64,000 nt of DNA, taken from positions 1 through 64,000 of the forward strand of contig NZ_WWDL01000024.1 in assembly GCF_009848505.1 (NCBI RefSeq), written 5' to 3'. The notes below the pieces were generated by a model. It was given only the letters and a program-made list of their open reading frames with translations. It made no database searches and was not told the origin of the DNA. Of this stretch, positions 3,007 through 52,132 are shown piece after piece. Position 1 is the stretch's first letter. Each line of letters begins with the position of its first letter. Position numbers and translations under genes: made by a program. The stretch comes from Muricoccus harenae. GTDB taxonomy: Bacteria; Pseudomonadota; Alphaproteobacteria; Acetobacterales; Acetobacteraceae.

Positions 3007-3021
3007 GTGGCGGATGGGGTG
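3007..3021 (+). other. Distal island attachment core (copy of the tRNA-Ser 3' end)
   Basis: The sequence GTGGCGGATGGGGTG is identical to 25880-25894, which covers the CCA end and acceptor/T-arm side of tRNA-Ser. Identity stops at 3022 (T versus G), so the rest of the tRNA is absent here. This is the expected product of integration into a tRNA 3' end. Confidence 0.7.
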
Positions 3022-3140: not shown

Positions 3141-3173
3141 GTCCACAAGACACTTGTGGACGATCTTGTGGAC
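3141..3173. repeat. Candidate integrase arm-type sites / operator (left end)
   Basis: CTTGTGGAC occurs at 3153-3161 and 3165-3173, and in inverted form (GTCCACAAG) at 3141-3149, forming a perfect palindrome with a 3-bp centre. The two direct copies are 12 bp apart. They lie just upstream of the chosen integrase ATG (3186), so they could be integrase arm sites, an autorepression operator, or both. Two similar 12-bp-spaced repeats near the other island end support the arm-site reading. Confidence 0.5.
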
Positions 3174-3185
3174 CGAGGCACGGGA

Positions 3186-4430
3186 ATGGCCAACCTCACG
3201 GCGACAGCGGTCAAGGCTCTGGTTGCCAAAGGGAAGCCGGGCGCTCATGCGGACGGAGGCAACCTCTACCTGCGCATTGCTGGCCCGGGTGCGGGCAAGT
3301 GGACGCTCCGCTTCATGCGGTCTGGGCGTGCGCGCGAGATGGGCCTCGGTGCATTCCATGCCGACGGTAAGGCAGGACTGACGCTGGCCCAGGCCCGCGA
3401 CGCCGCAGAAGCTGCTCGAGTTCTTCTGCGTAAGGGCCTCGACCCGCTGGAGCATCGCAAGGCGCTCTCCAGGTCAGAGGCTCAGGCTAAGGCGGAAGCA
3501 GAGGCAGAGGCCCGCACCTTCCGCCAAGTGGCGGAGCATCACCTGTCCGCTCATGAGGCCGGCTGGCGGAACGCCAAGCACCGAGCCCAATGGCGCTCAA
3601 CCCTGGAAACCTATGCCTACCCGTTCTTCGGGGACCGCTCGGTCGGCGAGATCAGGACGGATGATGTCCTGCGGGCACTGCAGCCGATCTGGACCGAGAA
3701 ACCCGAGACCGCTTCCCGCGTGCGGGGCCGGATCGAGGCGGTCCTCTCCCATGCGGCGGCCCGCGGCTGGCGGCAGGGCGATAATCCTGCTCAGTGGCGT
3801 GGCCATCTCTCGAACCTGCTGCCTCGTCGCAGCAAGGTCGCCATGGTCCAGCACCACGCGGCCCTGCCCTGGCAGGAGATGGCGGCCTTCATGGTGCAGC
3901 TACGGAGCATTCGGGCGACTGCGGCCCGAGCGCTGGAGTTCGCCATCCTAACCGCGGCTCGCTCGGGCGAGGTCTTCGGGGCCCAATGGTCCGAGGTGGA
4001 TCTGGAGGCCGCCACCTGGACCGTGCCGGCCGGCCGAATGAAGGCGAGGCGCGAGCATCGAGTGCCACTTTCCTCGGCCGCCTTGGCCGTTCTGGAGGCC
4101 ATGCTCCTGCCGGGGCAGGCCAAGGGCGAGGGCTACGTGTTCCCCGGCCAGCGCAGCGGTAAGCCGCTCTCCTCCATGGCAATCTTGATGCTTTTACGCC
4201 GGATGAAGCGGGGCGACCTGACGGCCCATGGTTTCCGATCCACCTTCCGCGACTGGTGCGAGGAGGCCACCAGCACGCCGCATGCGGTGTCGGAGGCGGC
4301 ACTGGCCCATACCATCAACGACAAGGTCGAAGCGGCCTATCGGCGTGGCGACCTGTTCGCCAAACGGCGTGTGCTCATGCAGGAATGGGCTAACTACTGC
4401 TCGATCGAACAGGTAATCGCCCGGGCCTGA
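3186..4430 (+). CDS. Tyrosine-type site-specific integrase (P4/DUF4102 family)
   Basis: This is a 414-residue phage-type integrase that would catalyse island integration and excision at the tRNA-Ser site. The N-terminal DUF4102 arm-binding region is at about 1-95 (ALVAKGKPGAHADGGNLYLR), the SAM-like core-binding domain at about 110-205, and the catalytic domain at about 225-395. The visible catalytic residues are Arg259 (TAARSGE), His348 and Arg351 (HGFRS), His375 (LAH) and the nucleophile Tyr385 (AAYRRGDL). I preferred the ATG at 3186 because the family starts just before the LTATAVKAL segment. The ATG at 3156 would run through the TTGTGGAC repeats. The gene points into the island and appears intact. 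Confidence 0.93.
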   Translation: MANLTATAVKALVAKGKPGAHADGGNLYLRIAGPGAGKWTLRFMRSGRAREMGLGAFHADGKAGLTLAQARDAAEAARVLLRKGLDPLEHRKALSRSEAQAKAEAEAEARTFRQVAEHHLSAHEAGWRNAKHRAQWRSTLETYAYPFFGDRSVGEIRTDDVLRALQPIWTEKPETASRVRGRIEAVLSHAAARGWRQGDNPAQWRGHLSNLLPRRSKVAMVQHHAALPWQEMAAFMVQLRSIRATAARALEFAILTAARSGEVFGAQWSEVDLEAATWTVPAGRMKARREHRVPLSSAALAVLEAMLLPGQAKGEGYVFPGQRSGKPLSSMAILMLLRRMKRGDLTAHGFRSTFRDWCEEATSTPHAVSEAALAHTINDKVEAAYRRGDLFAKRRVLMQEWANYCSIEQVIARA

Positions 4431-10327: not shown

Positions 10328-10360
10328 GAGCTCGAGCGTCCTCGCGCTGAAGGATTCCTG

Positions 10361-13083: not shown

Positions 13084-13554
13084 ATGCTCCTCCGTACCTT
13101 GCTGCTCGTCTTCGCTCTCACGTCTTCAGCCCTCGCGGAGGAGCTGCGCGGCCGGGTCGTGGGCATCACAGATGGCGATACGCTGACGTTGCTCACGCCT
13201 GAGCGGCAAGAGGTCAAGATCCGCCTGGCCGAGATCGACACGCCCGAGAGCCGCCAGCCTTACGGCACACGTGCCCGGCAGGCGCTGTCCGACCTCGCCT
13301 TCCAACGCGACGTGCTTATCAATATTATTGATACCGACCGCTACGGGCGGAGGGTGGGACGCATTTACGCGGACCGGGTGGATGTGAATGCCGAAATGGT
13401 CCGCCGTGGTGCAGCGTGGGTCTATCGGCGTTACAGCCGAGACCCGTCGCTGCTGGCGCTAGAGGAAGAGGCCCGACAGGCACGGCGCGGCGTCTGGGCT
13501 CTGTCGGAAAGCGAGCGTACGCCACCTTGGGAGTGGCGGCGGGAGCGACGGTAG
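13084..13554 (+). CDS. Secreted thermonuclease (staphylococcal nuclease homologue)
   Basis: A 156-residue protein with a clear Sec signal peptide (LLRTLLLVFALTSSALA, cleavage near residue 18) and one SNase domain. The calcium/catalytic residues are visible: Asp in GITDGDTL, Arg and Asp/Glu in IRLAEIDTPE, and Arg in DRYGRRVGRI. It would cleave DNA or RNA in the periplasm or outside the cell. It is a stand-alone gene between two defence-like loci and converges with the end of the motor operon. A role in degrading incoming DNA is inference; such nucleases also occur as scattered accessory genes. Confidence 0.9.
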   Translation: MLLRTLLLVFALTSSALAEELRGRVVGITDGDTLTLLTPERQEVKIRLAEIDTPESRQPYGTRARQALSDLAFQRDVLINIIDTDRYGRRVGRIYADRVDVNAEMVRRGAAWVYRRYSRDPSLLALEEEARQARRGVWALSESERTPPWEWRRERR

Positions 13555-13659: not shown

Positions 13660-14649
13660 CTAGCGCGCGCCTCCGGCCTCAGAGGAACCGTTGGAGAACT
13701 GCCTTACCCTCTCGCGGAGGACGTCAAGGTCCGGGGCACCGGGTGCCGCGAGGAGGAAGCGCACTTCGATACGCCGATTAGCAGCGAGGTCCTCCTCCCG
13801 GTCACTGACTCGTCCCGGTACCGGTCTGTCGGGCCCATAACCCGAGACACCCATCAGCGGCACGCCCGCTGCGTTCCTGAGTTCCCAGAGTTCCGGTCGC
13901 ACCGCCTGGAGCGCGGCGTAGGTGTTGAGCGCACGGTTAGCTGACAACTCGTAGTTCCCGTCGCGCTCCCCCGTGCCAAGCCGCCGTCGGTCAGTGTGCC
14001 CCTCGATGAAGACTGCGTCGATCACCGGGGCACCGACGCCGACGCAATCCGCACGCGCCTCGGCGCTGGCTGCGAAGCACGGGAGGATGGTTGCTAGGGC
14101 GTCGGCAAGCGCACGGACCGCCTCGCGCGCCGGACCGCCGGCTGGGAGATCGGAGCGTCCCGACGCGTACAGGATGCGGTCTGAGAGGCGGAGGACGCCC
14201 GTGCGGGCGTCGAGGGTTACAGGGACGCCTCGACGCTCCAGCGCGTCCTGCAGGGAGGATAGGAGGGCCGTCCGGAGAGCTCGCGCCCTGCCGAGTGCCT
14301 CATCCAGACGACGGACCTCTACTCCCAAGCCCTCGCTCACCTCGGCGCGCAACGCTGCTACCTCCACTTGGGCGGCGCGCCTCATCGCCTCAAGCTCCGC
14401 CTCGACCTGCACCCGCCGCGCCTCTAGCGCCTCGGCCGTACGCCGCACCATATCCAGCTCTGCCTCCCGCGCGACGCGGTGCTCTTCCGCCTCGGCCCGC
14501 TGGCGCTCCGCCTCGCCCGTAGCCGTCGCAAGATGCAGGGCAAATGCAAACAACGCGACGATGAAGACAAACAGCAATCCAGCCATGAGGTCCGAAACGG
14601 AGACGAGGTATCCCTCCGGCTCCTCCTCAATGTTAGCCTTACCCCGCAT
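13660..14649 (-). CDS. MotB/ZorB-like stator with OmpA peptidoglycan-binding domain
   Basis: A 329-residue inner-membrane protein. A short cytoplasmic N-terminus leads into one TM helix (LMAGLLFVFIVALFAFAL, about 20-40) with an Asp just at its start (VSVSDLM), the position of the ion-carrying Asp in MotB/ZorB/TolR-type proteins. A coiled coil (about 45-120) follows, then an OmpA-like domain (about 150-310) with IEGHTDRRR, NYELSANRALNTY and NRRIEVRF. It should bind peptidoglycan and pair with the MotA-like protein encoded 3 bp upstream. It is the last gene of the operon. Flagellar MotB is unlikely because the partner and neighbours are not flagellar. Confidence 0.88.
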   Translation of the reverse strand: MRGKANIEEEPEGYLVSVSDLMAGLLFVFIVALFAFALHLATATGEAERQRAEAEEHRVAREAELDMVRRTAEALEARRVQVEAELEAMRRAAQVEVAALRAEVSEGLGVEVRRLDEALGRARALRTALLSSLQDALERRGVPVTLDARTGVLRLSDRILYASGRSDLPAGGPAREAVRALADALATILPCFAASAEARADCVGVGAPVIDAVFIEGHTDRRRLGTGERDGNYELSANRALNTYAALQAVRPELWELRNAAGVPLMGVSGYGPDRPVPGRVSDREEDLAANRRIEVRFLLAAPGAPDLDVLRERVRQFSNGSSEAGGAR

Positions 14650-14652
14650 TCG

Positions 14653-17058
14653 TCAGCCCCCAGCTGCGAGGAGCTTTGTGCCCGACAGCGCATCGCCCCC
14701 CACTGCAGCGCCCATCGCATCGGACCGCACATCATCCGCCATTCCCGTGCGGAGCGCCGAGAGACGCTCGGAGACAGACCGGAGCTCTTCGACAACATCC
14801 AAGGTGGCGGGCGCGTCAGCCATCCTCCCAGCTGCCGCATCTAGAACGGAGGCCGCGCGCCCGACGAGGGACGCCGCGTCGCCGGTGGCAATGCGCCAGT
14901 CGTGAAGCGACACGGCGAGAGTACCGGCCGCCCCCTCAGCGGCAACCACCGATGCCTTAAGGAGATCCGCCGCCCCCGAAACTGCTCCGGCCGCCTCGAC
15001 GAGCAGTCGTGAAGACGCTGCGCCCGAGGTCGTCAGCGCCGATCCGGCAGCCGTTCCGGCCGTTCCGACGGCGACGCCCGCTTCACGGATCTCGCGCCCG
15101 GCATCCGTGGCAGCGCGTACGAGCTGCTCCTCGACCTTCCGGCCCCCCTCTTCAAGGCGCCCGCTAGCGCGTTCGAGCACCTTGCTGAAACCCTCCGCGC
15201 CGAGTTCGACGCTTGACCGCAGAGCACTCGTGCCTTCCAGCAGTCCGTCGCGGAGGGTCGTCCCCGCCACGCCGGCGGCGATGCCCGCTTCACGGATCTC
15301 GCGCCCGGCATCCGTGGCAGCGCGTACGAGCTGCTCCTCGACCTTCCGGCCCCCCTCTTCAAGGCGCCCGCTAGCGCGTTCGAGCACCTTGCTGAAACCC
15401 TCCGCGCCGAGTTCGACGCTCGACCGCAGAGCACTCGTGCCTTCCAGCAGTCCGTCGCGGAGGGTCGTCCCCGCCACGCCGGCGGCGACGCCCGCTTCAC
15501 GGATCTCGCGCCCGGCATCCGTGGCAGCGCGTACGAGCTGCTCCTCGACCTTCCGGCCCCCCTCTTCAAGGCGCCCGCTAGCGCGTTCGAGCACCTTGCT
15601 GAAACCCTCCGCGCCGAGTTCGACGCTCGACCGCAGAGCACTCGTGCCTTCCAGCAGTCCGTCGCGGAGGGTCGTCCCCGCCACGCCGGCGGCGACGCCC
15701 GCTTCACGGATCTCGTGCCCGGCATCCGTGGCAGCGCGTACGAGCTGTACCTCGGCCTTCCGGGCCCCCTCTTCGAAGCGCAGGCCGGCGCGTTGGATCA
15801 CCTCACTCAGGCGCTCCCCACCCAGTTCAAGATTGGCCCGCAGGGCACTCGTGCTTTCCAGCAGCCCATCACGGAAGAGCGTCCCGGCCCGGGCGGAGGA
15901 CCGCTCCCACTCGGGTCCGGCTGCGGTGAGCGCCGTGCGCGCGACCTCCGCCGCGTCAGCAATTTGCCGGGCTGCGTCCGACGCCGCTTGCGCCAAATCA
16001 CGTGCGGCGTCTGCGCCCGCTCCAGCGAGCCCCTCGCGCACCGTGGCGAGCGTCTCGGCAAGGGCGCGCACGTGGCCGCCAACCCGCTCCATCGCGATGG
16101 TCGCCTCCCGAATCTGCGTGCCCGCCGCGGACTCCAGTCGCTCGTGGAAGCGATCCGCCATCTGTTCCAGGGCACGGCGATTGCCCTCCGAGACCGAACC
16201 AGTCATGCGTGTGATTGCAACGGTAAGCGGCTGTACTGCGTCGCTCAGCCGCCGCGACAGAGCCTCGTCGAACTTTGCAGCGACCGCAGCCGCCAGGTGG
16301 TCCGTCTCATGACGACGCGTGCCGGAATCGCCGCGGAGCAGCGCCTGTGTCTCGGAAGCGACCTCCTGAGGTGTAAGGGGCGGCAGCCGTCGGTCGAGCA
16401 CGGCAAGAAACGCTGCGATGGCCCGCTCCGCCCTAAGGGTCTCACGCCGGAGCCAACTCGCAAACGTAAGGGAGAGAAACAGGGCTGCCACCGAGAAAGC
16501 AAACTTTGTGGCCGCTGTGCCGAGCAGTCTGCCAAGGCCGTCTTGTACTTGGCCGAGATCCGAGGCGCCGAGTGTTCCACCAACGGCCTTTAGAGCGAGG
16601 ACGAGGCCGAAAAACGTAAGGAGCAGACCTACCCCGACGAGGGTATTCGAATGCGCCCGCGCGGCGCGCAGGTCGGCGCCTGCGGCGCCGAGCAGTTGAA
16701 GCCCGAAGAACTCTGTCGCCGGAATTGTCTGGCGGTAGGCGCCACCGGACAGCCCAGGACGAAGTAGGCTGCGGTCCATTGCGGCCCATGCGTCACCGAC
16801 TGCTGAGGCGGTGCGGAAGCGTTCGTTGAGGGTAGGATAGTCATCGGCAACCTCTTCAGCCTCCCCAGCCCGAACAAGTGCCTCGCGCATTCCATCAAGT
16901 GCCTTGCGTACGGTGCGCCCGGCCACGGCGACCGGGCGCGCGGCCCTGAATGTCCATGCGGCGAGGACGAGGAAAACGACGCCAACGGTGAAAGGGGACG
17001 AGTAGAGATCGTTTGCAGCTAACCAGATGCCGCCGGAGGTGAGATTTATGTCAGTCAT
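14653..17058 (-). CDS. MotA/ExbB/ZorA-like proton channel with long repetitive tail
   Basis: An 801-residue protein. It has three hydrophobic segments at about 22-40, 143-165 and 197-215. The second contains NTLVGVGLLLTFFGL, matching the GLLGTFxG signature of MotA/TolQ/ZorA channels. The remaining about 580 residues are Ala/Glu/Arg-rich, predicted as a long helical cytoplasmic tail, as in ZorA of the Zorya antiphage system. Within it, three near-identical 69-residue repeats and a fourth divergent copy occur (about 388-663). With the OmpA-domain protein it would form an ion-driven stator. No ZorC, ZorD or ZorE is visible, so this is Zorya-like rather than a known Zorya type. Confidence 0.85.
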   Translation of the reverse strand: MTDINLTSGGIWLAANDLYSSPFTVGVVFLVLAAWTFRAARPVAVAGRTVRKALDGMREALVRAGEAEEVADDYPTLNERFRTASAVGDAWAAMDRSLLRPGLSGGAYRQTIPATEFFGLQLLGAAGADLRAARAHSNTLVGVGLLLTFFGLVLALKAVGGTLGASDLGQVQDGLGRLLGTAATKFAFSVAALFLSLTFASWLRRETLRAERAIAAFLAVLDRRLPPLTPQEVASETQALLRGDSGTRRHETDHLAAAVAAKFDEALSRRLSDAVQPLTVAITRMTGSVSEGNRRALEQMADRFHERLESAAGTQIREATIAMERVGGHVRALAETLATVREGLAGAGADAARDLAQAASDAARQIADAAEVARTALTAAGPEWERSSARAGTLFRDGLLESTSALRANLELGGERLSEVIQRAGLRFEEGARKAEVQLVRAATDAGHEIREAGVAAGVAGTTLRDGLLEGTSALRSSVELGAEGFSKVLERASGRLEEGGRKVEEQLVRAATDAGREIREAGVAAGVAGTTLRDGLLEGTSALRSSVELGAEGFSKVLERASGRLEEGGRKVEEQLVRAATDAGREIREAGIAAGVAGTTLRDGLLEGTSALRSSVELGAEGFSKVLERASGRLEEGGRKVEEQLVRAATDAGREIREAGVAVGTAGTAAGSALTTSGAASSRLLVEAAGAVSGAADLLKASVVAAEGAAGTLAVSLHDWRIATGDAASLVGRAASVLDAAAGRMADAPATLDVVEELRSVSERLSALRTGMADDVRSDAMGAAVGGDALSGTKLLAAGG
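15071..15898 (-). repeat. Tandem 207-bp coding repeats in the MotA/ZorA-like gene
   Basis: Units start at 15071, 15278, 15485 and 15692, each exactly 207 bp (69 codons). The first three are nearly identical at the DNA level, differing at only a few bases. The fourth has diverged. Such recent duplication suggests the tail length can change by unequal recombination while staying in frame. Confidence 0.9.
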
Positions 17059-17080: not shown

Positions 17081-17791
17081 TCACAGCGGGAGGCTCAGGC
17101 GGCCCTTGCGCCGAACGGCCCAGCCTTCCTGCTCGATAATAGCAGGCTGGATCGCCCGCAGGTCCGGTCCTGGCACGATGTCAAACAGCCATCCTAGGCG
17201 AGCCTCGGCTGCCCGCCCGGCGTCGCTCGTCAGAAGGCCTTGTCCTCGGCGGAGGTTGAAGGCCGGGAACACCGCCCGCGCGTCGCCGACTACGAGGACA
17301 TAGATGTCAGCTCGGTCAGCCGAACCGCTTACCGGTGTGGGAGCCGTGCCACCAGCATCTAGGGCGTAACCGCGCCCAATGCGGTACCGCTCCGCGAATG
17401 ACACGAAGGCTGATGCCGACTCAAGCGCGCGGCCAGCATCGTCGCAGAAGCTCTCCCAGGTAGGCCGCGCAGGCAAGGGTGCTGCCGACTGTTGGAGCAT
17501 TTCGCGTTCGGGGAGACACGCCGATTTTTGAGCAACAGGTCTGTCGGGGCGCGCAGTCGCGGAACGCTGACAAGCCTCCAAATCGGAGGCTTTCGGGGTT
17601 GTCGCTGAGTTGAAGGCCGCCGCCTCAAGCGCCTTTAGCCGTCGCTCGACGCGCTGTAGTTCGGTAGCCGTCTGACGTACGAGCTGGTCGTTCCGTCTTA
17701 CCGACGCCCGAGCGACAACCCATATAGCTACTGCCAGCGTTGTTGCGGCGACAAGGCTGGCCCCGAGGACCGCAATCTGTATCCAGTTCAC
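17081..17791 (-). CDS. Membrane-anchored coiled-coil protein of the motor operon (unknown)
   Basis: A 236-residue protein. It has one N-terminal TM helix (IAVLGASLVAATTLAVAIWVVA, about 5-26) and then a short coiled coil (LVRQTATELQRVERRLKALE, about 37-56). A linker with two Cys follows, and a C-terminal globular region (about 110-236) with DIYVLVVGDARAVFPAFN and WLFDIVPGPDLRAIQPAIIE. I recognise no family. The start codon overlaps the stop of the actin-like gene (ATGA), and the MotA-like gene follows 22 bp later. It could link the actin-like ATPase to the membrane motor, an inference from gene order. Confidence 0.75.
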   Translation of the reverse strand: MNWIQIAVLGASLVAATTLAVAIWVVARASVRRNDQLVRQTATELQRVERRLKALEAAAFNSATTPKASDLEACQRSATARPDRPVAQKSACLPEREMLQQSAAPLPARPTWESFCDDAGRALESASAFVSFAERYRIGRGYALDAGGTAPTPVSGSADRADIYVLVVGDARAVFPAFNLRRGQGLLTSDAGRAAEARLGWLFDIVPGPDLRAIQPAIIEQEGWAVRRKGRLSLPL

Positions 17792-20700
17792 GGTAGCCTC
17801 AGAGGCATTTCGTCCACCGCAAGCCTCCGCACGAAGCGGCGAAGCAGCACGACAAAGGGTGGTTCGATAGGGGACGTGTCTTCGACAGGCCCTTCGGCTG
17901 TCACATCGGCAAGCGCCGCTGTCTGGGCGCGTTGGATCTCGGCGTTAGCTTCGCCGATGAGGTTACCGATGACGGGCTCTGGCGTGAGAGCCCGAATTCC
18001 CAGGGAGGGGAGTTTGTTCAGGAACCTGCGGAATTCAGGCGCATCCTCGATCCGGCAGGGCTCGCTAACCGCAAGATCCGCGACTCTCGCCGAGGGCCTA
18101 ATCGGGTTTGCCCCCGATACCACGGCCTCCCCGAGGAGCGGGTCGGCTGCCACACGGCCGAGGAGAGACGCGTCGTCGCGTACTAGGCCATATGCAACCT
18201 CTTCCTTAGGCTCAGTCGAGAAGACGAGGTTGGCCCGTGGCATAGCCTCCCCTGTCGCGTCGGTGAAAAAGCGAAGGACCCTATCTGTCTCCTCGGGTGA
18301 CCGAAGCAGCGCGCGGAATAGAAGGGAGGCGCGGCCGCCCAGGCAAAGGGAGACGTTCGTGCCTCTGCGCGCCTCAATACGGCCCGCCTCGACAAGTGAA
18401 CGTACCACCCGTCCAGTGTAATCGAGGAGTCCCGCGAGCCCTGTTAGCGCGACGGCCTTCAGACGCTCTGCTTCCGGTGACCCAGCGAGAACGGGGAGGT
18501 ACCGATCCAGCGCTGTGGCGAAGGGCTCGCTATTCACGACGAGCTCGGTGGCGAGAATGCCCTTCATATCGTCGAGCGTGAGCTTCTCTCCAAGCGTGTC
18601 GACGAGTGCCTTAAGCTCGGGTTGATAGCCCGCAAGCTTCCGAAGGATGGCGGGATGCTTGCGCAGGTGATCGATAAGCAACGCGCGTCCCGCGAGTTCG
18701 AAGGAGCCCCGCCACGCAAGCGGCTCAGCACCCAACGTGCGCTGCTGGACAACGGCAACGTCGGTCGTCCCACCTCCGATATCGAAGCTGACCAAGCCCT
18801 CCGGCGGAGGCACGTTCCGACGATGGATAAAGTACAAGGCGGTGCTCACCGACTCGGTCCGGAACTCGACGGGCGGGTCCGTTCTGGTGCGCTCACCCGT
18901 GACTGTTTCCACCGCGAGGCGGACGGCGTTCCGGGCCGCCTGCTGGAAGCCGGTGAGTTGCCACGGGCGGAACGCCTCGGGGAATGAGAATCGAAAGGCG
19001 ACTGCGCCCGGCTGCACACCGCGCGCGCCAGCCTCGGCAAGAGCGAGCAGCGCTACCTCCGTGAGAAATAGCTCAATGCGCTTCGGCGCATCGACTTCCC
19101 TCGACCACTTGAGGTTGAAGTCGAGCCCTTCGGCGGTACCGCCGAAGTGCGCGATGGCCGACTGGCGGCGCTGTGCGAAGTAGATAAGCGCGTCTCGGAA
19201 GATCCGCTCCCCGTCGACTCTGCCCAAGCCGCGCCTCACGCGGAGGATCGTCTGGAACGGAATGCCAACGTCGGTCGCCGGCAGGAACTCACGGTCAAGC
19301 AGATCGCGCCCCTGGTCTGCATCGCTGTAGGCTGCGACGTGCCTCGCCGCAATGCGGAGCGGTGCAGTCTCACCCCCAGGAAGCTGCAGGTAAACCGAGG
19401 TGTTTGTCGTGCCGAAATCGATGCCGACCGTCGCGCGGCCGCTCGCTGCGGACGGAGCAGGCTCTGGCAAGGGCAGCAGGAGGAGACCCGCCACTTGGCG
19501 CTCGTCGGATCGGCGGTATTCCAGGACCGCGGCTTCCGCGGGACCCGGCAGCTGGTGGATGCCCTGCGCCTCCGAGCGATCGTCGCGAAGCCAAGTGGTC
19601 TCGCCCGCCGCTGTAACGTCGCCGGCGAGCAGCGCGCGCGCAGCCGCCACTGCGCTGAAGCCATCGTTCGCCTCAAAGCGCCGGCGAATCCCATCCTTCG
19701 ACAGAAGGCCCGTCGGCGTGAACTGAATAGACACTGAAGCGCTCGTGAAGCCGAGGTGGAGACGCCACCAGGAAGCGCGGAAGTTCGGCCACACCGAAAG
19801 CACAAGCGGGGGTTCCAAAGACTCCTCGTCCGGGTAGAGGCGCGAGAGTGTCACCGTTCCGCCGGACTCGAGCGTCAGGGCAAGATGCAGCGTCGTTCCC
19901 TCGCCGCCGGCGATAAGGCGACATGCACGCCCTAGAGCCGGACCGTCCAAAAGCGCAAGCAGGAACGGGGAAAGCGGGAGGAGGTGCTCCCGGGCTCCTG
20001 CTGGGTGCTGGTCAAATCCGCGCTCTCCACCGATGCCGTCCACGCGGTGGAGCCGCGGCAGGAATAGCTCGCCTGTGCTGACGATCAGGTATCCTTTGGA
20101 CTGCGCGTCCGACCTGATGCCGTCTAGGAGCGCAGGATTTGCCCTCAACATCGCGAGGGAGACCGTGCCCCAGACGCGCAAGTTCCCAGCCGATACGCCG
20201 AGAAGCCGGTCCATCTCGTCGTCCACTAGGACGACCCCGTTGAGGTGCGACCCGAGACCCTCGCGCAGCCGGAGGAGGCAGTCGGACGCGGCCTTTCCGG
20301 TCAGCGCGACGTGCTCTCGTCTGTTCATTGCGCGGAACACGGGCAGGGACGGGAGGCGCGTGACGGCGGGCTCTTCCTCAAACGCGGGTTCCGTTCCGCT
20401 AGGTTTCGCGTCCGCCATATATGCTCGGATGAGTCCGAGGAGAGCGGCGACATCTGGCGAGGTCGCTAGGGGCCTCATTGCCTCGTCAACCCTGGACAGG
20501 AAGCGCGCCAGAACCCACCGGTCGCTAGTCCCAAGGGAGGCGATCTTGAGCGGGTCGCGGAAACGCCCATCAACTACCCAGGGAACCGGCGGCCGTTCTC
20601 CGGGGTCCCCGAGCGAGCGACTTGGAGAAAGTAGGGTCAGCGGCTGGGCGAGGGCGATTACGCGGCCGTCGACCCGTACAATCGCTACCTCGTCGATCGT

Positions 20701-21105
20701 TCCCCCTTGCAGCAATGCAGCTCGTGGCGGAAGGCGCCGCACGATGTCCGCCCAGGGGCCAACCGCAAGGTCCGACAGCCTCATCTCCGTGGAGGTGAGG
20801 CCGGGCACATAGGCTGAGGCGAGCGCGAAAGTCGCAAGAAGCCCGCGCCATTCTTCTACGGCTCGCGAGTGAAATGGGTGCTGCTCACCAGTTAACGCGT
20901 CGTGGAACACCGTAACCGCCGCCCAGACGTCCGGAACGGAGACGATCTCATTCCCCGCCGCTAGGCTCTCCGTCGTTTTAAGGCCGCGCGCAATCGCAGT
21001 CAGCTGGTCGGCGGAGCCGAGGGAGTGCCACACTCCCGCCGCCGGGATCGGGGGCACGCGGTGGTCGGCGCGTAGAGGAGGCAGCAAGGGAGACTTCACC
21101 GTCAC
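17788..21105 (-). CDS. Actin/Hsp70-like ATPase with large N-terminal domain
   Basis: A 1105-residue protein. Residues 1 to about 550 are an unrecognised region. From about 560 there is an actin-fold ATPase with phosphate-1 VGIDFGTTNTSVY (560-572), connect-1-like ESVSTALYF (about 751), phosphate-2 SFDIGGGTTDVAV (about 773-785) and adenosine motif LCLGGRASLL (about 920-929). Key Asp and Gly residues are intact, so ATP binding is expected. I chose the GTG at 21105, two bases after the tubulin-like stop, because AAGGAG lies 7 bases upstream. A longer frame to 21138 is less likely. SrfB-like virulence ATPases have a related layout, but I cannot claim membership. Confidence 0.85.
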   Translation of the reverse strand: MTVKSPLLPPLRADHRVPPIPAAGVWHSLGSADQLTAIARGLKTTESLAAGNEIVSVPDVWAAVTVFHDALTGEQHPFHSRAVEEWRGLLATFALASAYVPGLTSTEMRLSDLAVGPWADIVRRLPPRAALLQGGTIDEVAIVRVDGRVIALAQPLTLLSPSRSLGDPGERPPVPWVVDGRFRDPLKIASLGTSDRWVLARFLSRVDEAMRPLATSPDVAALLGLIRAYMADAKPSGTEPAFEEEPAVTRLPSLPVFRAMNRREHVALTGKAASDCLLRLREGLGSHLNGVVLVDDEMDRLLGVSAGNLRVWGTVSLAMLRANPALLDGIRSDAQSKGYLIVSTGELFLPRLHRVDGIGGERGFDQHPAGAREHLLPLSPFLLALLDGPALGRACRLIAGGEGTTLHLALTLESGGTVTLSRLYPDEESLEPPLVLSVWPNFRASWWRLHLGFTSASVSIQFTPTGLLSKDGIRRRFEANDGFSAVAAARALLAGDVTAAGETTWLRDDRSEAQGIHQLPGPAEAAVLEYRRSDERQVAGLLLLPLPEPAPSAASGRATVGIDFGTTNTSVYLQLPGGETAPLRIAARHVAAYSDADQGRDLLDREFLPATDVGIPFQTILRVRRGLGRVDGERIFRDALIYFAQRRQSAIAHFGGTAEGLDFNLKWSREVDAPKRIELFLTEVALLALAEAGARGVQPGAVAFRFSFPEAFRPWQLTGFQQAARNAVRLAVETVTGERTRTDPPVEFRTESVSTALYFIHRRNVPPPEGLVSFDIGGGTTDVAVVQQRTLGAEPLAWRGSFELAGRALLIDHLRKHPAILRKLAGYQPELKALVDTLGEKLTLDDMKGILATELVVNSEPFATALDRYLPVLAGSPEAERLKAVALTGLAGLLDYTGRVVRSLVEAGRIEARRGTNVSLCLGGRASLLFRALLRSPEETDRVLRFFTDATGEAMPRANLVFSTEPKEEVAYGLVRDDASLLGRVAADPLLGEAVVSGANPIRPSARVADLAVSEPCRIEDAPEFRRFLNKLPSLGIRALTPEPVIGNLIGEANAEIQRAQTAALADVTAEGPVEDTSPIEPPFVVLLRRFVRRLAVDEMPLRLP

Positions 21106-21107
21106 GT

Positions 21108-22628
21108 TCAGGCTCCTTCGCGCTGGTGGCCGAGGCACGCCGCATGCAGCGCCGCGACGAGGCGGGCTGGCCCGGCGGCACCGGCGATAGGGGCGTCGTA
21201 CGTCAAGGCAGAGAAGACGTCAGAAAGGCCCGGCCCCGCGACGGGCGGGACGAGGTGCCGGAACCCGGCTTCTCCCACAGCCGCAGAGAGCTGCATCCGC
21301 GCGACGTCGGCGGAGTCCCAGGCGCGGGCGAGGAGGTCGTCGGCAACGAGTGCGAGGCGCTGGCCCGCCCCAGCGCTTCCGCGGTTTAGAGCGACGAACC
21401 ACCGCAAAAAGTCGTCGGATGCTTCGGTGAGCTTCGATATCGCCCGCTGAGATGCTTCAGCGGCCACCGAGTTGCCGACTGCGGGCGCGAGGTGAGCCTG
21501 GAACCACGCCTCGCGGTCGTGCCGCCTCCAGGCGTCACCGGTCAGCGCCGGGACGTACTGCTCTCGCCAAGCTACTGCGGTCCGGACCGCCGCCGCGACG
21601 TACTCGCGCACCTTGCCCCGCGTACCGACGTCGGGCAGGTCATCCCAGCCGACTACGTCACCTCCGCCTGTGCGGGTGGCAAGCACTCCCCTCGCTGGAT
21701 CGCTGCGAGCCGCTAGAAAATCTAGAGCGGCGAGGGCAGCAACGAGTTCGGGCAGGAGAGGGGGGTTCGCCTGCAGCGAACCGCCGTCTGAATAGGTTCC
21801 TAGCGGGACGAGGGGGTCGCTGCCGAGTAGGTATAGATTGTCAAACACTGTCTCCTCTCGGAACAGGCCTGCATAGTGCTCGAGGGCCCCGCGGGCTTGC
21901 ATGAGGAATGCTGAGGAGTCTGGGCGGATCGCTGGACCTGACCCGGGCGGTGGCGCTGGGAAGGCGAAATACGGGAGCATGAGCACGCCGCCGAGCTTCA
22001 CGCGCTCGCCTAGCCCACGCTCCTCGATTGCCTTCCGGAGAAGGCGAGCGACGGTTGGAAAGCCTGCGGCCCCGGTACCACCGAATACAGAGGCCACGAG
22101 GAGGATGCGTACCTCCTCGCCCTGTCCAGCGGCTTGCAGCGCGCCTAAGAGGTCATGCCAAACGTCGGAGCTTGGTGTAACGCCCTGGAGTGTCAACGCA
22201 GCCCCGAGGGCGGGCCGCTGCCGGAAGCCTTCGTCAAGTTGCAGCCGCCGCTCATCGCTTGAGAATAGGATTTCGGCAAGCGCCGCCTCGCTAGCCGGCA
22301 GACCGCCGAACCCGATGGAGGTTGCAAGGCTCACGGACGACCTCTCGTCTGGCGCCCAGGCCCAGCCAGCCTTGGGCCTTTCGATGGCAGTGCGCAGGAG
22401 CGGACACGGCCCAAGGTCATTCGCGCCCGCTGCGCGAAAGGCGGTGCGGAGATTGCTCGCCTCCGCGAGGACGCGTATCGCGCGTGCAGCATTGCCGTTG
22501 GAGCGATCCTGGTCGAGCAAGCCGATCCAGGTGGAGTCGGGCCCAAGGCCGCAGAAAGCAAGGCGGACGAATGCTTCGACGCATTTTGCGCCGGTGCCTC
22601 CGATGCCAAGGAGGAAGTTCGCGCTCAT
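21108..22628 (-). CDS. Tubulin/FtsZ-like GTPase (Tubulin_2-like)
   Basis: A 506-residue protein. It opens with NFLLGIGGTGAKCVEAF, a first glycine-rich loop, and has the tubulin-type G-box at about 160-175 (VASVFGGTGAAGFPT), followed by an FtsZ-like helix (VARLLRKAIEE) and an 'LLGSDPL' strand. These features match prokaryotic Tubulin_2-like proteins rather than the cell-division FtsZ. It probably binds GTP and may polymerise. The start at 22628 overlaps the stop of the 4-TM gene (ATGA), and the next gene starts 2 bp after its stop, so expression is tightly coupled. Polymer formation is not shown by sequence. Confidence 0.8.
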   Translation of the reverse strand: MSANFLLGIGGTGAKCVEAFVRLAFCGLGPDSTWIGLLDQDRSNGNAARAIRVLAEASNLRTAFRAAGANDLGPCPLLRTAIERPKAGWAWAPDERSSVSLATSIGFGGLPASEAALAEILFSSDERRLQLDEGFRQRPALGAALTLQGVTPSSDVWHDLLGALQAAGQGEEVRILLVASVFGGTGAAGFPTVARLLRKAIEERGLGERVKLGGVLMLPYFAFPAPPPGSGPAIRPDSSAFLMQARGALEHYAGLFREETVFDNLYLLGSDPLVPLGTYSDGGSLQANPPLLPELVAALAALDFLAARSDPARGVLATRTGGGDVVGWDDLPDVGTRGKVREYVAAAVRTAVAWREQYVPALTGDAWRRHDREAWFQAHLAPAVGNSVAAEASQRAISKLTEASDDFLRWFVALNRGSAGAGQRLALVADDLLARAWDSADVARMQLSAAVGEAGFRHLVPPVAGPGLSDVFSALTYDAPIAGAAGPARLVAALHAACLGHQREGA

Positions 22629-23143
22629 AGGGAGTTCAGACGGCTTGCGAAGGGCACGGCCGGGCGCATCATCCGCTCCGTTCCGACGAAGGAAAGAAGC
22701 CAGTACGCGAGCGCGGCAGCAAGGCAGACATAGAGGGCGCACTGGGTCGCAGCTGCCTCGTCAACGGTCGTAAGCCAGAAGCTGAGGAACAAGTAGGTCG
22801 CCCCTAGCGCGCCGATAACGACGACCAGCAGCAGCAGAACCCAAACGCCACGCCGCCAGCCGCTGCCAGCCAGCCCCGGCCCGATCGGACGTGCGACGAG
22901 GTTCATGAGCGAGAGAACGACGAAGGCGAAAAAGACGGCCGCAGCGGCAAGGGAGAAAGCGCGCTGCATTCCGGCGGTCACCTCCGGCACGAAGCGCGCG
23001 ACTAGTTCCTCCATCCTGTAGGCAGGCTGAAGCATTCCCTCTGCGATGGAGGAAGGCAGGAAAGCAGGAAGAAACCAAGCCATGGCGATGAGAGCGAGGC
23101 CCACGATCGTCCCGAGCATGAAAGGTCTGAGCCAGTGACGCAT
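22625..23143 (-). CDS. Four-TM membrane protein of the motor operon
   Basis: A 172-residue protein with four hydrophobic segments at about 10-35 (MLGTIVGLALIAMAWFLPAF), 60-85, 99-125 and 131-152. Short basic loops suggest an inner-membrane protein. I recognise no family. The start at ATG 23143 lies 7 bp after the stop of the vWA gene. An upstream in-frame ATG at 23215 would overlap that gene by 65 bp and adds a basic, motif-free leader. It overlaps the tubulin-like gene by 4 bp. It may anchor the cytoskeletal proteins or the vWA protein to the membrane. Confidence 0.75.
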   Translation of the reverse strand: MRHWLRPFMLGTIVGLALIAMAWFLPAFLPSSIAEGMLQPAYRMEELVARFVPEVTAGMQRAFSLAAAAVFFAFVVLSLMNLVARPIGPGLAGSGWRRGVWVLLLLVVVIGALGATYLFLSFWLTTVDEAAATQCALYVCLAAALAYWLLSFVGTERMMRPAVPFASRLNSL

Positions 23144-23150
23144 GCGCACC

Positions 23151-24587
23151 TCAGCGTCTTGGGATCTGGAAGGCCAGGAGCGCCTCCGCGATCGGTTGGG
23201 GTTGGAGTTCTTCACGCACGAGCGTCTCCAGCATGGTTGCCACCTCCCGCAAATGCAGGGTGCGGAACAAGCTCGGCCGAGTCGCCGTGAAAGCCTCTGC
23301 GTCGCGGGCTTCGAGGTTCCAAGCTCGAGTCCACGCAGTTGCGGCGGGCGCCTCGGACAGGCCGCTGGCGGTCACCCTCGCTTGGACCAGGAACGGCACG
23401 CCTGGCGGCACGCGCGACAGCGCAGAACCGCCGACCGTCAGCACCGGTGCACCGTCCCGCAACGAAACGGACGCGAGCGGCCCAGGAAGGCTCCGGATCC
23501 TCAGCCATCGGTCCGCACAAGCCGCGCGCGGTGCCGACTCTGCCCAAACCGCCTCCTCGACCTGGAAGATGTCGGGGAGGAGGATGGGAGCTGCCGCGCG
23601 TTCCTGGAGCGGTATCCGGGCCGAGGCTAGACCGCCGGCGTTCGGGAATGCGATCTGGCGTACATCGGGCCCAAGTGCGGGCGCCAGCGACGAGGCCGTC
23701 AAGGCGGGCGCCACCGGAGTCAGGTCAACCGCGATGGGGGCTTCCTCTAGCGGCCTGCGCGAGAAGATAGTTACTTGCGAGCGGGGCGCCCCGTCCGGCG
23801 TAGGGGGAAGCGAGGCAAGGATTTCCACCTCTATGCGGTGCAGCAACCTTGTAACCGCAGGAAGCGAGCCCGTCGCTACGACGTAGAACGGGCGCTCGGA
23901 TGCGCCGTCATACGTTCGGACGCCAGGGATGTCGAATATTGTCCCTGAGAAGCCTGATCGAATGCCCATAAGACCGACGCTGCGGCCGTCGCTGAGGATC
24001 CGTCCAAGCGGCGCACGGATCGCGGATGCCCCACCGAATATCTCGTCACCGGTGAGGAAAAGGTCTGTGACGAGCAGGCCGAGCTCGTCGGCAGGCATCG
24101 TCTCCATGCGATTGAGGGCGTCGCCAATGCGGCTTTCTGCATCCCGAAAGAAGTCGGGCCGGCTCGCGCGCGGCAACTCAGCGAGCGGCACAGGCCTGAT
24201 TGTCCGGCCGAAGGCGAACGTCGTGACACTATCAGCGACGTGCGACACGATCTGCGGGAGGCTCAGGACGAGGTCGCGGAAAGTGCGAGGCTCGGGCACC
24301 TCAGCCGCCCGGCGGGCGCGCGCGCCCGCAGGAACCGCCGACCTGGGTGTCGCGACGTAACCCGCCATACTGGCCGAGGCGTCGATCAGGACGGTAGCGG
24401 CTCGAGGGCGCGTGCCTAGGCCTGCAGTGGTGCGCGGCTGCCTTGCCGGGATGGTAATGCCCAGTGGCAGGCACGCGGCGGCTGGCCGCTGCATGAACGG
24501 CAACAGCAGTGCGCCAGATGCCGCAAGGGTTATTGCCCGACGCCCGGGGCACGCGGGAGGATCTTGTTTAGCGAGTGACACAACCAT
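23151..24587 (-). CDS. Exported von Willebrand factor A-like protein
   Basis: A 478-residue protein from ATG 24587; an upstream start at 24641 is possible. The N-terminus has a twin-Arg plus hydrophobic stretch (GRRAITLAASGALLLPF) ending near AAAC, so it is probably exported and perhaps lipid-anchored. A vWA fold follows, with MIDAS residues DASASMAGY (about residue 75) and a conserved Asp in LLVTDLFLTGDE (about 178). The C-terminal half is beta-rich and unassigned. It is the first gene of the seven-gene operon. A metal-dependent adhesion or ligand-sensing role in the periplasm fits a motor that spans the envelope, but this is inference. Confidence 0.78.
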   Translation of the reverse strand: MVVSLAKQDPPACPGRRAITLAASGALLLPFMQRPAAACLPLGITIPARQPRTTAGLGTRPRAATVLIDASASMAGYVATPRSAVPAGARARRAAEVPEPRTFRDLVLSLPQIVSHVADSVTTFAFGRTIRPVPLAELPRASRPDFFRDAESRIGDALNRMETMPADELGLLVTDLFLTGDEIFGGASAIRAPLGRILSDGRSVGLMGIRSGFSGTIFDIPGVRTYDGASERPFYVVATGSLPAVTRLLHRIEVEILASLPPTPDGAPRSQVTIFSRRPLEEAPIAVDLTPVAPALTASSLAPALGPDVRQIAFPNAGGLASARIPLQERAAAPILLPDIFQVEEAVWAESAPRAACADRWLRIRSLPGPLASVSLRDGAPVLTVGGSALSRVPPGVPFLVQARVTASGLSEAPAATAWTRAWNLEARDAEAFTATRPSLFRTLHLREVATMLETLVREELQPQPIAEALLAFQIPRR

Positions 24588-24679
24588 AACGGTAGCTGTC
24601 AATCGGTACACCTCCAAGACGGAGTTTTCATATTTCGTCACGTGTTACATGATTTGGGAGGTAGTGTGGATTTAGGCGC
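24588..24679. promoter_or_regulatory. Divergent promoter region of the motor operon and GYF-like gene
   Basis: A 92-bp, comparatively AT-rich gap separates the divergent starts at 24587 and 24680. It contains an imperfect palindrome at 24638-24652 (TCACGTGTTACATGA), which may be an operator. The sequence GGGAGGT (24656-24662) is a plausible ribosome-binding element but is 17 bases from the plus-strand ATG. No regulator gene for it is evident in the island besides the AlpA-like protein. Confidence 0.4.
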
Positions 24680-25879: not shown

Positions 25880-25894
25880 GTGGCGGATGGGGTG
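25880..25894 (+). other. Island attachment core within the tRNA-Ser 3' end
   Basis: These 15 bases are identical to 3007-3021. They cover the CCA end, discriminator, acceptor 3' strand and the first bases of the T arm of the minus-strand tRNA-Ser gene, which remains complete after integration. Confidence 0.7.
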
Positions 25895-25970
25895 GGATTC
25901 GAACCCACGGTGAGGTCACCCCCACGGCGGTTTTCAAGACCGCTGCCATAGACCACTCGGCCACCCATCC
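25881..25970 (-). tRNA. tRNA-Ser (anticodon UGA)
   Basis: The minus-strand sequence folds as a 90-nt class II tRNA. The acceptor stem is GGATGGG/CCCATCC, followed by a D arm starting GCCGAGTGG. The anticodon loop has CTTGAAA with anticodon TGA, followed by a long variable arm. The T arm is GTGGG-TTCGAAT-CCCAC. Discriminator G and encoded CCA complete it. It reads UCN serine codons. It is the integration site of the island on its 3' side. Confidence 0.96.
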
Positions 25971-51337: not shown

Positions 51338-52132
51338 TCAGCCGCCCTTGTACTGCACGGCCTGGCGGCCGCGCTGGCCGTCGCGCACGTCCAGATTCAC
51401 CTTCTGGCCCTGCTGCACATCGGTCACGCCGGCGCGCTGCAGAACGGAGGAGTGCAGGAACACGTCCTGGCCACCGTCATCCGGGGTCACGAAGCCGAAG
51501 CCACGCACCTGGTCGAACCACTTCACCGTCCCATTGACGGCATAGGTCGGGCCACCCTCGTCGCGACCAAAATCGCGGCGCGGCGGACGATCGCCACCAC
51601 CGCCGCCGCCGAAGTCACGGCGCGGCGCGCCGAAGCCACCGCCCGGCGGGCCACCAAAGCCACCACCCGGGGGGCCACCGAAGTCGCGGCGCGGCGGACG
51701 ATCACCAAAGCCACCGCCACCACCACCGAAGTCACGGCGCGGCGGACGATCCCCGAAACCACCACCACCACCACCGAAGTCACGGCGCGGCGGACGATCC
51801 CCGAAACCACCACCACCGCCGCCGAAATCACGGCGCGGCGGACGATCACCAAAGCCACCGCCACCACCACCGGCGCCGCCGCCCGGGCCGGGCTTCAGCT
51901 CAACGATGCGCGTGACGAGCCGGCGACCCTGGCGGTCGGTGCCGATCTCGCAGACGAGCTTATCACCCGTATCGGCCGACTGGATGCCAGCCTCGGCCAT
52001 GGCAGATGCGTGGAAAAACACATCCTGTCCGTCGGGCCCGAGCACGAAGCCGAAACCCTTACGGCCGTTGTACCACTTCACCTCGGCCTCGACGGGCCCG
52101 GTGCCGCCCTGCGATTCATTCTCGGGAAACAC
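51338..52132 (-). CDS. Double cold-shock-domain protein with Arg/Gly-rich repeat linker
   Basis: A 264-residue nucleic-acid-binding protein. It has CSD1 at about 14-78 (VKWYNGRKGFGFVLGPDGQDVFFH, described in outline) and CSD2 at about 198-262 (VKWFDQVRGFGFVTPDDGGQDVFLH). Both keep the RNP1 KGFGFV/RGFGFV and RNP2 VFFH/VFLH motifs. The linker contains four copies of a 16- to 17-residue unit, GGFGDRPPRRDF with Gly-runs, then GGPPGGGFG units. It resembles eukaryotic RGG-box RNA chaperones. The start is GTG 52132. The protein may undergo RNA-driven condensation, but that is inference. Confidence 0.9.
   Translation of the reverse strand: MFPENESQGGTGPVEAEVKWYNGRKGFGFVLGPDGQDVFFHASAMAEAGIQSADTGDKLVCEIGTDRQGRRLVTRIVELKPGPGGGAGGGGGGFGDRPPRRDFGGGGGGFGDRPPRRDFGGGGGGFGDRPPRRDFGGGGGGFGDRPPRRDFGGPPGGGFGGPPGGGFGAPRRDFGGGGGGDRPPRRDFGRDEGGPTYAVNGTVKWFDQVRGFGFVTPDDGGQDVFLHSSVLQRAGVTDVQQGQKVNLDVRDGQRGRQAVQYKGG
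51570..51880 (-). repeat. Coding tandem repeats in the cold-shock gene linker
   Basis: Repeated units of about 48-51 bp, including CGGCGCGGCGGACGATC, encode the GGFGDRPPRRDF units. Individual copies are almost identical, so copy number could vary between strains. These are protein-coding repeats, not a CRISPR array. Confidence 0.85.

What the first reader, a model, noticed from the sequence alone, without database searches (positions are those of the whole stretch)
14653..17058. ZorA-like tail carries near-identical 207-bp repeats
Four 69-codon units start at exactly 207-bp intervals (15071, 15278, 15485, 15692). Three are almost identical at DNA level, implying very recent duplication. In ZorA the long tail is thought to set reach or signal transmission into the cytoplasm. 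Here the tail length could change by recombination without frameshift, tuning the motor between strains.
Basis: partly seen in the sequence, partly recalled or inferred. Interest (0 to 1): 0.6.

Follow-up and report, generated by a model that had tools for sequence, protein, structure and literature searches.

The report
Repeat-lengthened motor tail beside cytoskeleton-like genes
A bacterial membrane-motor protein of the kind used against viruses has had its long rod recently lengthened by near-identical in-frame DNA repeats, and its gene sits in an operon with relatives of tubulin and actin rather than with the usual defence nucleases.

Summary
The repeats are real. A 207-bp (69-codon) unit occurs four times, in frame, in the tail of an 801-aa ZorA-like gene (minus strand, 14653-17058). 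Units 2-4 differ by 1-2 bases; unit 1 is 80% identical. The closest relative found, in Roseomonas rubea, has one 73-aa unit there; one 203-aa gap explains most of the length difference. Third codon positions are at chance level between the two species but not between units, so the copies most likely arose after the split, in at least two steps. Three units would add about 31 nm of helix.

This is not a standard Zorya system. ZorAB ends a seven-gene operon (vWA-like, membrane protein, tubulin-like, actin/Hsp70-fold, one-TM protein, ZorA, ZorB) on a tRNA-Ser island. ZorC/ZorD are not adjacent; genome-wide the ZorD profile found nothing (the ZorC search is uninformative). R. rubea keeps all seven genes in order. 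Of 17 related tubulin-like loci, 4 have a ZorAB pair (two with weak ZorA matches); the ZorA tree needs at least two changes of association. That tail length is tuned between strains is untested: no second strain was available and the contig is a draft.

The parts
15071..15277 (-). tail repeat unit 4 (69 codons)
15278..15484 (-). tail repeat unit 3
15485..15691 (-). tail repeat unit 2
15692..15898 (-). tail repeat unit 1 (older, 80% identical overall; its last 56 bases have one difference from u2)
14653..17058 (-). ZorA-like motor subunit, 801 aa, hydrophobic segments within the first 200 aa, then long tail
   Evidence: PADLOC ZorA1 2.1e-38; NF033914 7.6e-43, 147 bits, under the 190-bit cut-off; PDB chain 8vvn_C 6.1e-12; hydropathy
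13660..14649 (-). ZorB-like subunit, one N-terminal hydrophobic segment, Asp in SDLM motif, OmpA-like EGHTD motif
   Evidence: PADLOC ZorB1 9.8e-72; alignment A4
17081..17791 (-). 236-aa protein with one N-terminal hydrophobic segment, no family match in Pfam, NCBIfam or PADLOC at 0.01
   Evidence: relative in L037, 1.4e-29
17788..21138 (-). actin/Hsp70-fold protein, 1116 aa, ATPase domain about 566-995
   Evidence: AF2 mean pLDDT 74.8; Foldseek best E 5.5e-10; VIA-align Z 15.9-18.3 to DnaK, MreB, FtsA, MamK and others; motifs
21108..22742 (-). tubulin-like protein (mechanical start; true start may be near residue 39)
   Evidence: PF13809 Tubulin_2 27.7 bits, cut-off 27; GGTGAAG loop; alignment A1
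22625..23215 (-). 196-aa membrane protein, several hydrophobic segments
   Evidence: relative in L037, 7.7e-38
23151..24641 (-). vWA-like protein, DxSxS motif (DASAS)
   Evidence: motif; no Pfam hit at 0.01; the R. rubea relative gives VWA_CoxE at E 0.012, under its cut-off
3156..4430 (+). tyrosine integrase of the island
   Evidence: Pfam Phage_integrase 1.9e-16
3007..3021 (.). 15-bp direct repeat, candidate attachment site, integrase end
25880..25894 (.). 15-bp direct repeat at the 3' end of tRNA-Ser (25881-25970, minus strand), candidate attachment site

Best explanation
The array is a recent in-frame tandem expansion inside the cytoplasmic tail of the A subunit of a ZorAB-type ion-driven motor. 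Shown: one unit in the closest relative found and four here; an older copying (unit 1 to unit 2), then a much younger one (units 2-4); every step adds 69 residues without a frameshift. Inferred: units are gained or lost by unequal recombination between copies (longest perfect lag-207 match 226 bp); each unit adds about 10 nm to a five-helix rod, about 31 nm for three, and 69 residues is close to 19 turns at the tail's hydrophobic period, so the bundle may stay in register. Shown: the motor genes belong to a seven-gene operon with a tubulin-like, an actin/Hsp70-fold and a vWA-like protein, not with ZorC/ZorD. Inferred: ZorB anchors in the wall, ZorA converts ion flow into motion or rearrangement of the rod, and the rod passes it to the cytoplasmic tubulin-like/actin-like pair, which stand in for ZorC/ZorD as the working end. 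Whether the output is phage defence or membrane remodelling is open; the island setting beside an Avs2 relic favours defence.
For: Array. One unit versus four: (801 against 617 aa, one 203-aa gap in R. rubea plus a 4-aa insertion there). Timing: window/R. rubea ZorA core 58% aa identity with third-position identity 0.325, shuffled 0.24-0.37; u1/u2 first 50 codons 0.68; u2-u4 99.0-99.5%. ZorA/ZorB identity; ion-path Asp (D20) and EGHT motif invariant in the 6 ZorB aligned. Operon: 22 bp from the 236-aa gene to ZorA and 3 bp to ZorB, the other genes overlapping as mechanically called; all 7 genes on one strand in the same order in R. rubea. Recurrence: ZorAB pair in 4 of 17 tubulin-like loci. 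Actin/Hsp70 fold. Hydrophobic period 3.65-3.66 in R. rubea (no repeats) and 3.64 in the Azospirillum ZorA, 0 of 300 shuffles as strong, giving 18.85-18.96 turns per 69 residues. Tail essential in known Zorya I and II: PMC11890865 section 6.
Against: No phage or motor assay. AF2 of ZorA failed (mean pLDDT 44.8), so tail helicity here rests on homologues and periodicity. The phase argument is weak: within 0.15 turn of an integer happens about 3 times in 10 by chance, the window's own 3.63-3.64 is biased by its repeats, and one ZorA (L009) gave 3.52 (19.6 turns) with one residue set and 3.64 with the other. An old array kept alike by concerted evolution here and lost in R. rubea would give the same picture; only one close relative was found. 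13 of 17 tubulin-like loci show no ZorAB, though L043, L044, L046 and L050 are cut by contig ends. The L051/L052 ZorA matches are weak (PADLOC best 1.5e-10 and 1.4e-9, largely over the coiled-coil; Pfam MotA_ExbB 0.046 for L051), although the L051 ZorB is clear (6.7e-24; Pfam OmpA 1.3e-10). L034 has the module beside a beta-galactosidase gene, not an evident defence setting.
Confidence: 0.6

Rival explanations
1. Neutral growth of a repetitive coiled-coil: GC-rich, Ala/Glu-rich tail DNA slips or recombines, the rod tolerates extra in-frame helix, and the copy number has no function.
For: Other ZorA-like tails carry unrelated internal repeats: TRF period of 30 or more in 3 of 48 ORFs (L068, L070, L073); protein-level lags of 66 in L071 and about 118-130 in L072 and L080, the latter not whole numbers of turns at 3.64. 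u1/u2 first 50 codons: dN/dS 0.26/0.54 (NG86), 0.32/0.37 (YN00), 0.26/0.68 (LWL85), relaxed rather than tight constraint.
Against: Tail deletion and tail mutations abolish defence in tested Zorya I/II (PMC11890865, section 6), and sizes are said to be well conserved within each family, so length is probably not free. dN is below dS by all three methods, barely so by YN00.
Confidence: 0.35
2. Assembly artefact: the draft contig miscounts near-identical 207-bp copies.
For: Genome is a 126-contig draft; the longest perfect lag-207 match is 226 bp, longer than common assembly k-mers (recalled).
Against: The three young units carry three different two-site haplotypes, so they are not one unit repeated by the assembler, and the diverged unit 1 is independent of the question. 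The exact number could still be off.
Confidence: 0.1
3. Ordinary type I Zorya with its ZorC/ZorD lost or elsewhere, next to an unrelated tubulin/actin/vWA operon.
For: Window and R. rubea ZorA group with five ZorA rows (98/96), four of which lie in loci with ZorD (the fifth, L059, was not tested).
Against: ZorD profile 0 matches in the own genome while the control rang in 8 of 14 genomes; ZorC profile also 0, but its control rang nowhere, so that is uninformative. Same seven-gene order in R. rubea at 58% ZorA core identity, and a ZorAB pair beside the module in three further loci, two of them weak.
Confidence: 0.12
4. Membrane-remodelling or envelope machine of the FtsZ-like-1/vWA/OmpA kind, not a defence system.
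For: Makarova and Koonin 2010 (PMC2875224, parts 1-3 of 5 read) predicted this for FtsZl1/vWA/OmpA operons; 13 of 17 tubulin-like loci here show no ZorAB.
Against: Island location beside an Avs2 relic; patchy: own genome only among 381 searched; nearest ZorA rows are in Zorya loci.
Confidence: 0.4

Closest known systems
Zorya type I (ZorA, ZorB, ZorC, ZorD)
   Same: ZorA and ZorB homology, ion-path Asp, peptidoglycan-binding motif, long ZorA tail; four of the five nearest ZorA rows in the tree come from loci with ZorD
   Different: no ZorC or ZorD beside it, ZorD profile not matched in the genome; partners are tubulin-like, actin/Hsp70-fold and vWA-like proteins; tail has a recent 69-aa tandem array
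FtsZ-like-1 / vWA / OmpA operons (Makarova and Koonin 2010, PMC2875224)
   Same: tubulin-superfamily protein, vWA-like protein and OmpA-domain protein in one operon, with further membrane proteins
   Different: that paper's main text has no occurrence of MotA, ExbB or Hsp70, and none of its 6 passages with 'actin' names an actin-like operon partner (its additional files were not seen); here the OmpA-like protein is the ZorB of a ZorAB pair. That the window protein belongs to their FtsZl1 family was not tested
MotAB and TolQR/ExbBD ion-driven motors
   Same: MotA/ExbB-like A subunit next to a B subunit carrying the Asp (recalled for these families; Zorya comparison in PMC11890865 section 6)
   Different: hundreds of residues of cytoplasmic tail, as in ZorA

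Membership tests
Zorya type I | ZorA: MotA/ExbB-like core plus long cytoplasmic tail | tested here: met
   PADLOC ZorA1 2.1e-38; NF033914 147 bits, under its curated cut-off of 190
Zorya type I | ZorB with ion-path Asp and peptidoglycan-binding domain | tested here: met
   PADLOC ZorB1 9.8e-72; D20 and EGHT invariant in 6 aligned
Zorya type I | ZorC and ZorD in the operon | tested here: not met
   none among the 10 window proteins scanned; ZorD 0 matches genome-wide; ZorC 0 but control silent
Zorya type I | anti-phage activity | not testable with these tools
   needs plaque assays
FtsZ-like-1/vWA/OmpA system | tubulin-superfamily protein | tested here: met
   PF13809 Tubulin_2 27.7 bits against 27; relative in L034 45.4 bits. 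Equation of PF13809 with FtsZl1 is recalled, not tested
FtsZ-like-1/vWA/OmpA system | vWA protein with MIDAS motif | tested here: inconclusive
   DASAS motif but no Pfam hit at 0.01; R. rubea relative VWA_CoxE 0.012, below cut-off
FtsZ-like-1/vWA/OmpA system | OmpA-domain protein in the operon | tested here: met
   ZorB-like; Pfam OmpA only 0.0056, below cut-off, but 13 NCBIfam matches, mostly MotB/OmpA families, best 6.5e-9, each under its own cut-off, and PADLOC ZorB1 9.8e-72
FtsZ-like-1/vWA/OmpA system | coiled-coil plus helical C-terminal domain of the FtsZl1 protein | not tested
   -
actin/Hsp70 superfamily (1116-aa protein) | actin-like ATPase fold with phosphate and adenosine motifs | tested here: met
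   residues about 566-995

The most novel reading that the evidence does not exclude
A Zorya-like machine whose ion-driven ZorAB motor acts on, or is read by, a dedicated tubulin-like/actin-like pair in place of ZorC/ZorD, with a cytoplasmic rod whose length changes in 10-nm, 19-turn steps by repeat recombination, so that the reach of the motor evolves by copy number.
Probability: 0.2. Interest if true: 0.85.

Novelty: new variant of a known kind. Interest (0 to 1): 0.55.

Why it matters
It gives a natural length pair for the ZorA rod (one unit against four) in otherwise syntenic operons, so the question of what the tail length does can be asked directly. [quoted passage not shown] a ZorAB motor with its wall anchor outside and its rod inside is a concrete answer to test.

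Tried and rejected
AF2 of the full ZorA: mean pLDDT 44.8, not used. A claim that 69 residues was selected for helical phase: kept only as weak support, because the window's spectrum is biased by its own repeats, R. rubea gives 18.85-18.90 turns and L009 gives 19.60 or 18.96 by residue set. A degenerate 73-residue repeat in the Azospirillum ZorA (lags 73 and 146, z 3.2 and 3.1, best of the lags 20-160 tried) hints at an old unit of similar size but is too weak to assert. The lag-20 signal in L067 is masked sequence. Relatives by the actin-like protein: none in genome contigs, none in plasmids; apart from the own genome, 1 weak match in 15 genomes of the genus, 2 weak in 391 relatives, and in a 398-genome draw 1 full-length and 2 partial. 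ZorA or tubulin-like in viral contigs and ZorA in phages: none. Side attempts to find a well-sampled ZorA in plasmids and in E. coli for a within-species length survey gave no match and were given up. Chance origin of the array: rejected. L034 and L039 appear to be the same record (contig length 795461 in both) and are not counted twice. The genome-contig scan used two short peptide patterns, so the 17 loci are a lower bound and not an even sample. Literature: search listings showed no title or abstract start describing a ZorAB-tubulin-actin operon or ZorA tail repeats; only open-licence papers are held, and the Nature 2025 Zorya paper was not held. Of PMC12505986 I saw passages only; they do not mention tubulin.

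Full report
Observation. TRF reports 15065-15889, period 207, 4.0 copies, and the direct-repeat search gives spacings of 207, 207, 207. On the coding (minus) strand the units are u1 15692-15898, u2 15485-15691, u3 15278-15484, u4 15071-15277. u2/u3 and u2/u4 differ by 1 base, u3/u4 by 2; u1 differs from u2 at 41 of 207. u2/u3 differ by one nonsynonymous codon and u2/u4 by one synonymous codon. In a scan of lags 60-400 across the window nothing else comes near it (1.00 here, next best 0.705).

The gene. The 801-aa product matches ZorA by PADLOC (ZorA1, 2.1e-38), NCBIfam NF033914 (147 bits, below the curated 190) and the solved ZorA chain 8vvn_C (6.1e-12, residues 28-368). Hydropathy peaks lie at 22-45, 136-165 and 182-200; the rest is tail. 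The next gene matches ZorB1 (9.8e-72) and keeps the membrane Asp and the EGHT motif in the six sequences aligned.

How the tail changed. The closest relative found is in Roseomonas rubea (L037). Its ZorA is 617 aa and aligns to the window protein with one gap of 203 aa in the repeat region and a 4-aa insertion: it has a single unit, 73 aa by my reading of the sequence, and TRF finds no repeat in that gene. Between the two species the ZorA core is 58% identical in protein but third-position identity is 0.325 against 0.24-0.37 in shuffles, that is, at chance; u1 against u2 over the first 50 codons is 0.68 at third positions, and u2-u4 are 99.0-99.5% identical. So the extra units were most likely gained on the window's side, in at least two episodes, the last very recent. 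An old array homogenised here and lost in R. rubea cannot be excluded with one relative. The last 19 codons of u1 are 98% identical to u2, which points to conversion between copies or shared recent copying. Unequal recombination is inferred; the longest perfect lag-207 stretch is 226 bp.

What it would do to the rod. Hydrophobic periodicity of the tail is 3.65-3.66 in R. rubea, which has no repeats, 3.64 in an Azospirillum ZorA, 3.63-3.64 here, and in L009 3.64 with one residue set but 3.52 with the other; none of 300 shuffles was as strong in any of these eight tests. 69 residues then make 18.85-19.0 turns, except 19.6 for the L009 value of 3.52. The window's value is biased by its own repeats. 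At 1.5 A rise per residue (textbook value), one unit is about 10 nm and three about 31 nm. AF2 of ZorA was uninformative. Mariano and others (PMC11890865; passages and section 6) describe the ZorA tails as bundling into a five-helix rod (low-resolution density plus AlphaFold models), report that deleting or mutating them abolishes defence in types I and II, and say that component sizes are well conserved within each family.

How common tail repeats are. Among 48 distinct ZorA-like ORFs collected (own genome left out; several cut by locus ends, one gene counted as two pieces), TRF with period of 30 or more rings in 3, with 45-bp and 108-bp units of 73-80% match; older protein-level repeats of 66 and about 118-130 residues appear in L071, L072 and L080. 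By TRF none of the 48 has near-identical long units as here.

The operon. ZorA and ZorB are the last two of seven minus-strand genes: vWA-like (23151-24641), membrane protein (22625-23215), tubulin-like (21108-22742, Pfam Tubulin_2 27.7 bits), a 1116-aa protein (17788-21138), a one-TM 236-aa protein (17081-17791), ZorA, ZorB. As mechanically called, genes overlap or lie 3-22 bp apart. The 1116-aa protein has no Pfam hit at 0.01 and no PDB sequence match up to E 1, but its AF2 model (12 sequences, pLDDT 74.8, pTM 0.62) matches DnaK, MreB, FtsA and MamK over about 566-995 (Foldseek best 5.5e-10; VIA-align Z 15.9-18.3, rmsd 3.1-5.7 A in the 50 rows shown), and has the DFGTTN, DIGGGT and GGRAS motifs.

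Relatives of the operon. With the tubulin-like pair alignment, a two-pattern scan of 84,980 species genomes gave 17 loci, in Alphaproteobacteria, Cyanobacteria, Selenomonadales, Cloacimonadota and Caldisericota by record title. From, 13 of 17 have the actin-like protein (L052 at 2e-5, L044 cut), and 4 of 17 have a ZorAB pair: R. rubea (all seven genes in order on one strand), Sandarakinorhabdus rubra (divergent orientation), and, with weak ZorA matches, Syntrophosphaera and a Caldisericia bin. L043, L044, L046 and L050 are cut by contig ends. In a 39-row ZorA tree, window and R. rubea group together (100/100) and with five ZorA rows of the same class or from Azospirillum (98/96); the five tubulin-associated rows need three changes, at least two forced by well-supported branches. 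Of those five neighbours, four loci carry ZorD nearby (those of L007 and L010 also ZorC); the fifth, L059, was not tested. The own genome has no ZorD match (control rang in 8 of 14 genomes) and no ZorC match (control silent, so uninformative).

Setting. The operon lies between a tyrosine integrase (3156-4430) and a tRNA-Ser; a 15-bp direct repeat at 3007-3021 and 25880-25894 marks a likely 22.9-kb integrated island, which also holds a split Avs2 gene, a staphylococcal-nuclease-like gene and Toprim/AAA genes. With alignment A1 the tubulin-like protein was found only in the own genome among 381 searched. This patchiness is what a mobile accessory system shows. The class is inferred to be Alphaproteobacteria, since G976, given as same class, appears to be the Sphingomonadaceae record of L039.

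Mechanism. Most likely a ZorAB motor anchored in the wall by ZorB drives or rearranges a long ZorA rod, and the rod works with the tubulin-like and actin-like proteins in place of ZorC/ZorD. The architecture is shown; coupling, output and any role of tail length are inferred. [quoted passage not shown] a ZorAB motor would span that gap.

Verdict. Observation confirmed; interpretation partly supported. Recent in-frame lengthening is real and differs between two species; tuning between strains is untested. The operon context is the more surprising part.

Noticed in passing
window 7991-12469 (-): Avs2-like defence gene split into two ORFs (702 and 778 aa) that match positions 28-729 and 747-1499 of the same PADLOC Avs2 profile; looks inactivated or split.
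   Followed up: partly
window 3007-25894: Probable 22.9-kb integrated island: integrase, Toprim/AAA genes, split Avs2, nuclease, ZorAB-tubulin operon, bounded by a 15-bp direct repeat at a tRNA-Ser.
   Followed up: partly
L036 9200-14992 (-): A 1931-aa open frame matching both the actin-like (5.3e-8) and the tubulin-like (3.1e-4) protein of the operon, possibly a fusion of the two.
   Followed up: no
L034/L039, L038, L040-L042, L048: Tubulin/actin/vWA modules without a ZorAB match; several have an unassigned or SH3-domain protein of about 570 aa nearby.
   Followed up: no
L037 6484-7716 (-) and window 13084-13554 (+): A staphylococcal-nuclease-like gene lies near the operon in both R. rubea and the window.
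   Followed up: no
window 51675-51872: A second tandem array, period 48, 4.1 copies, 90% match.
   Followed up: no
   Followed up: no
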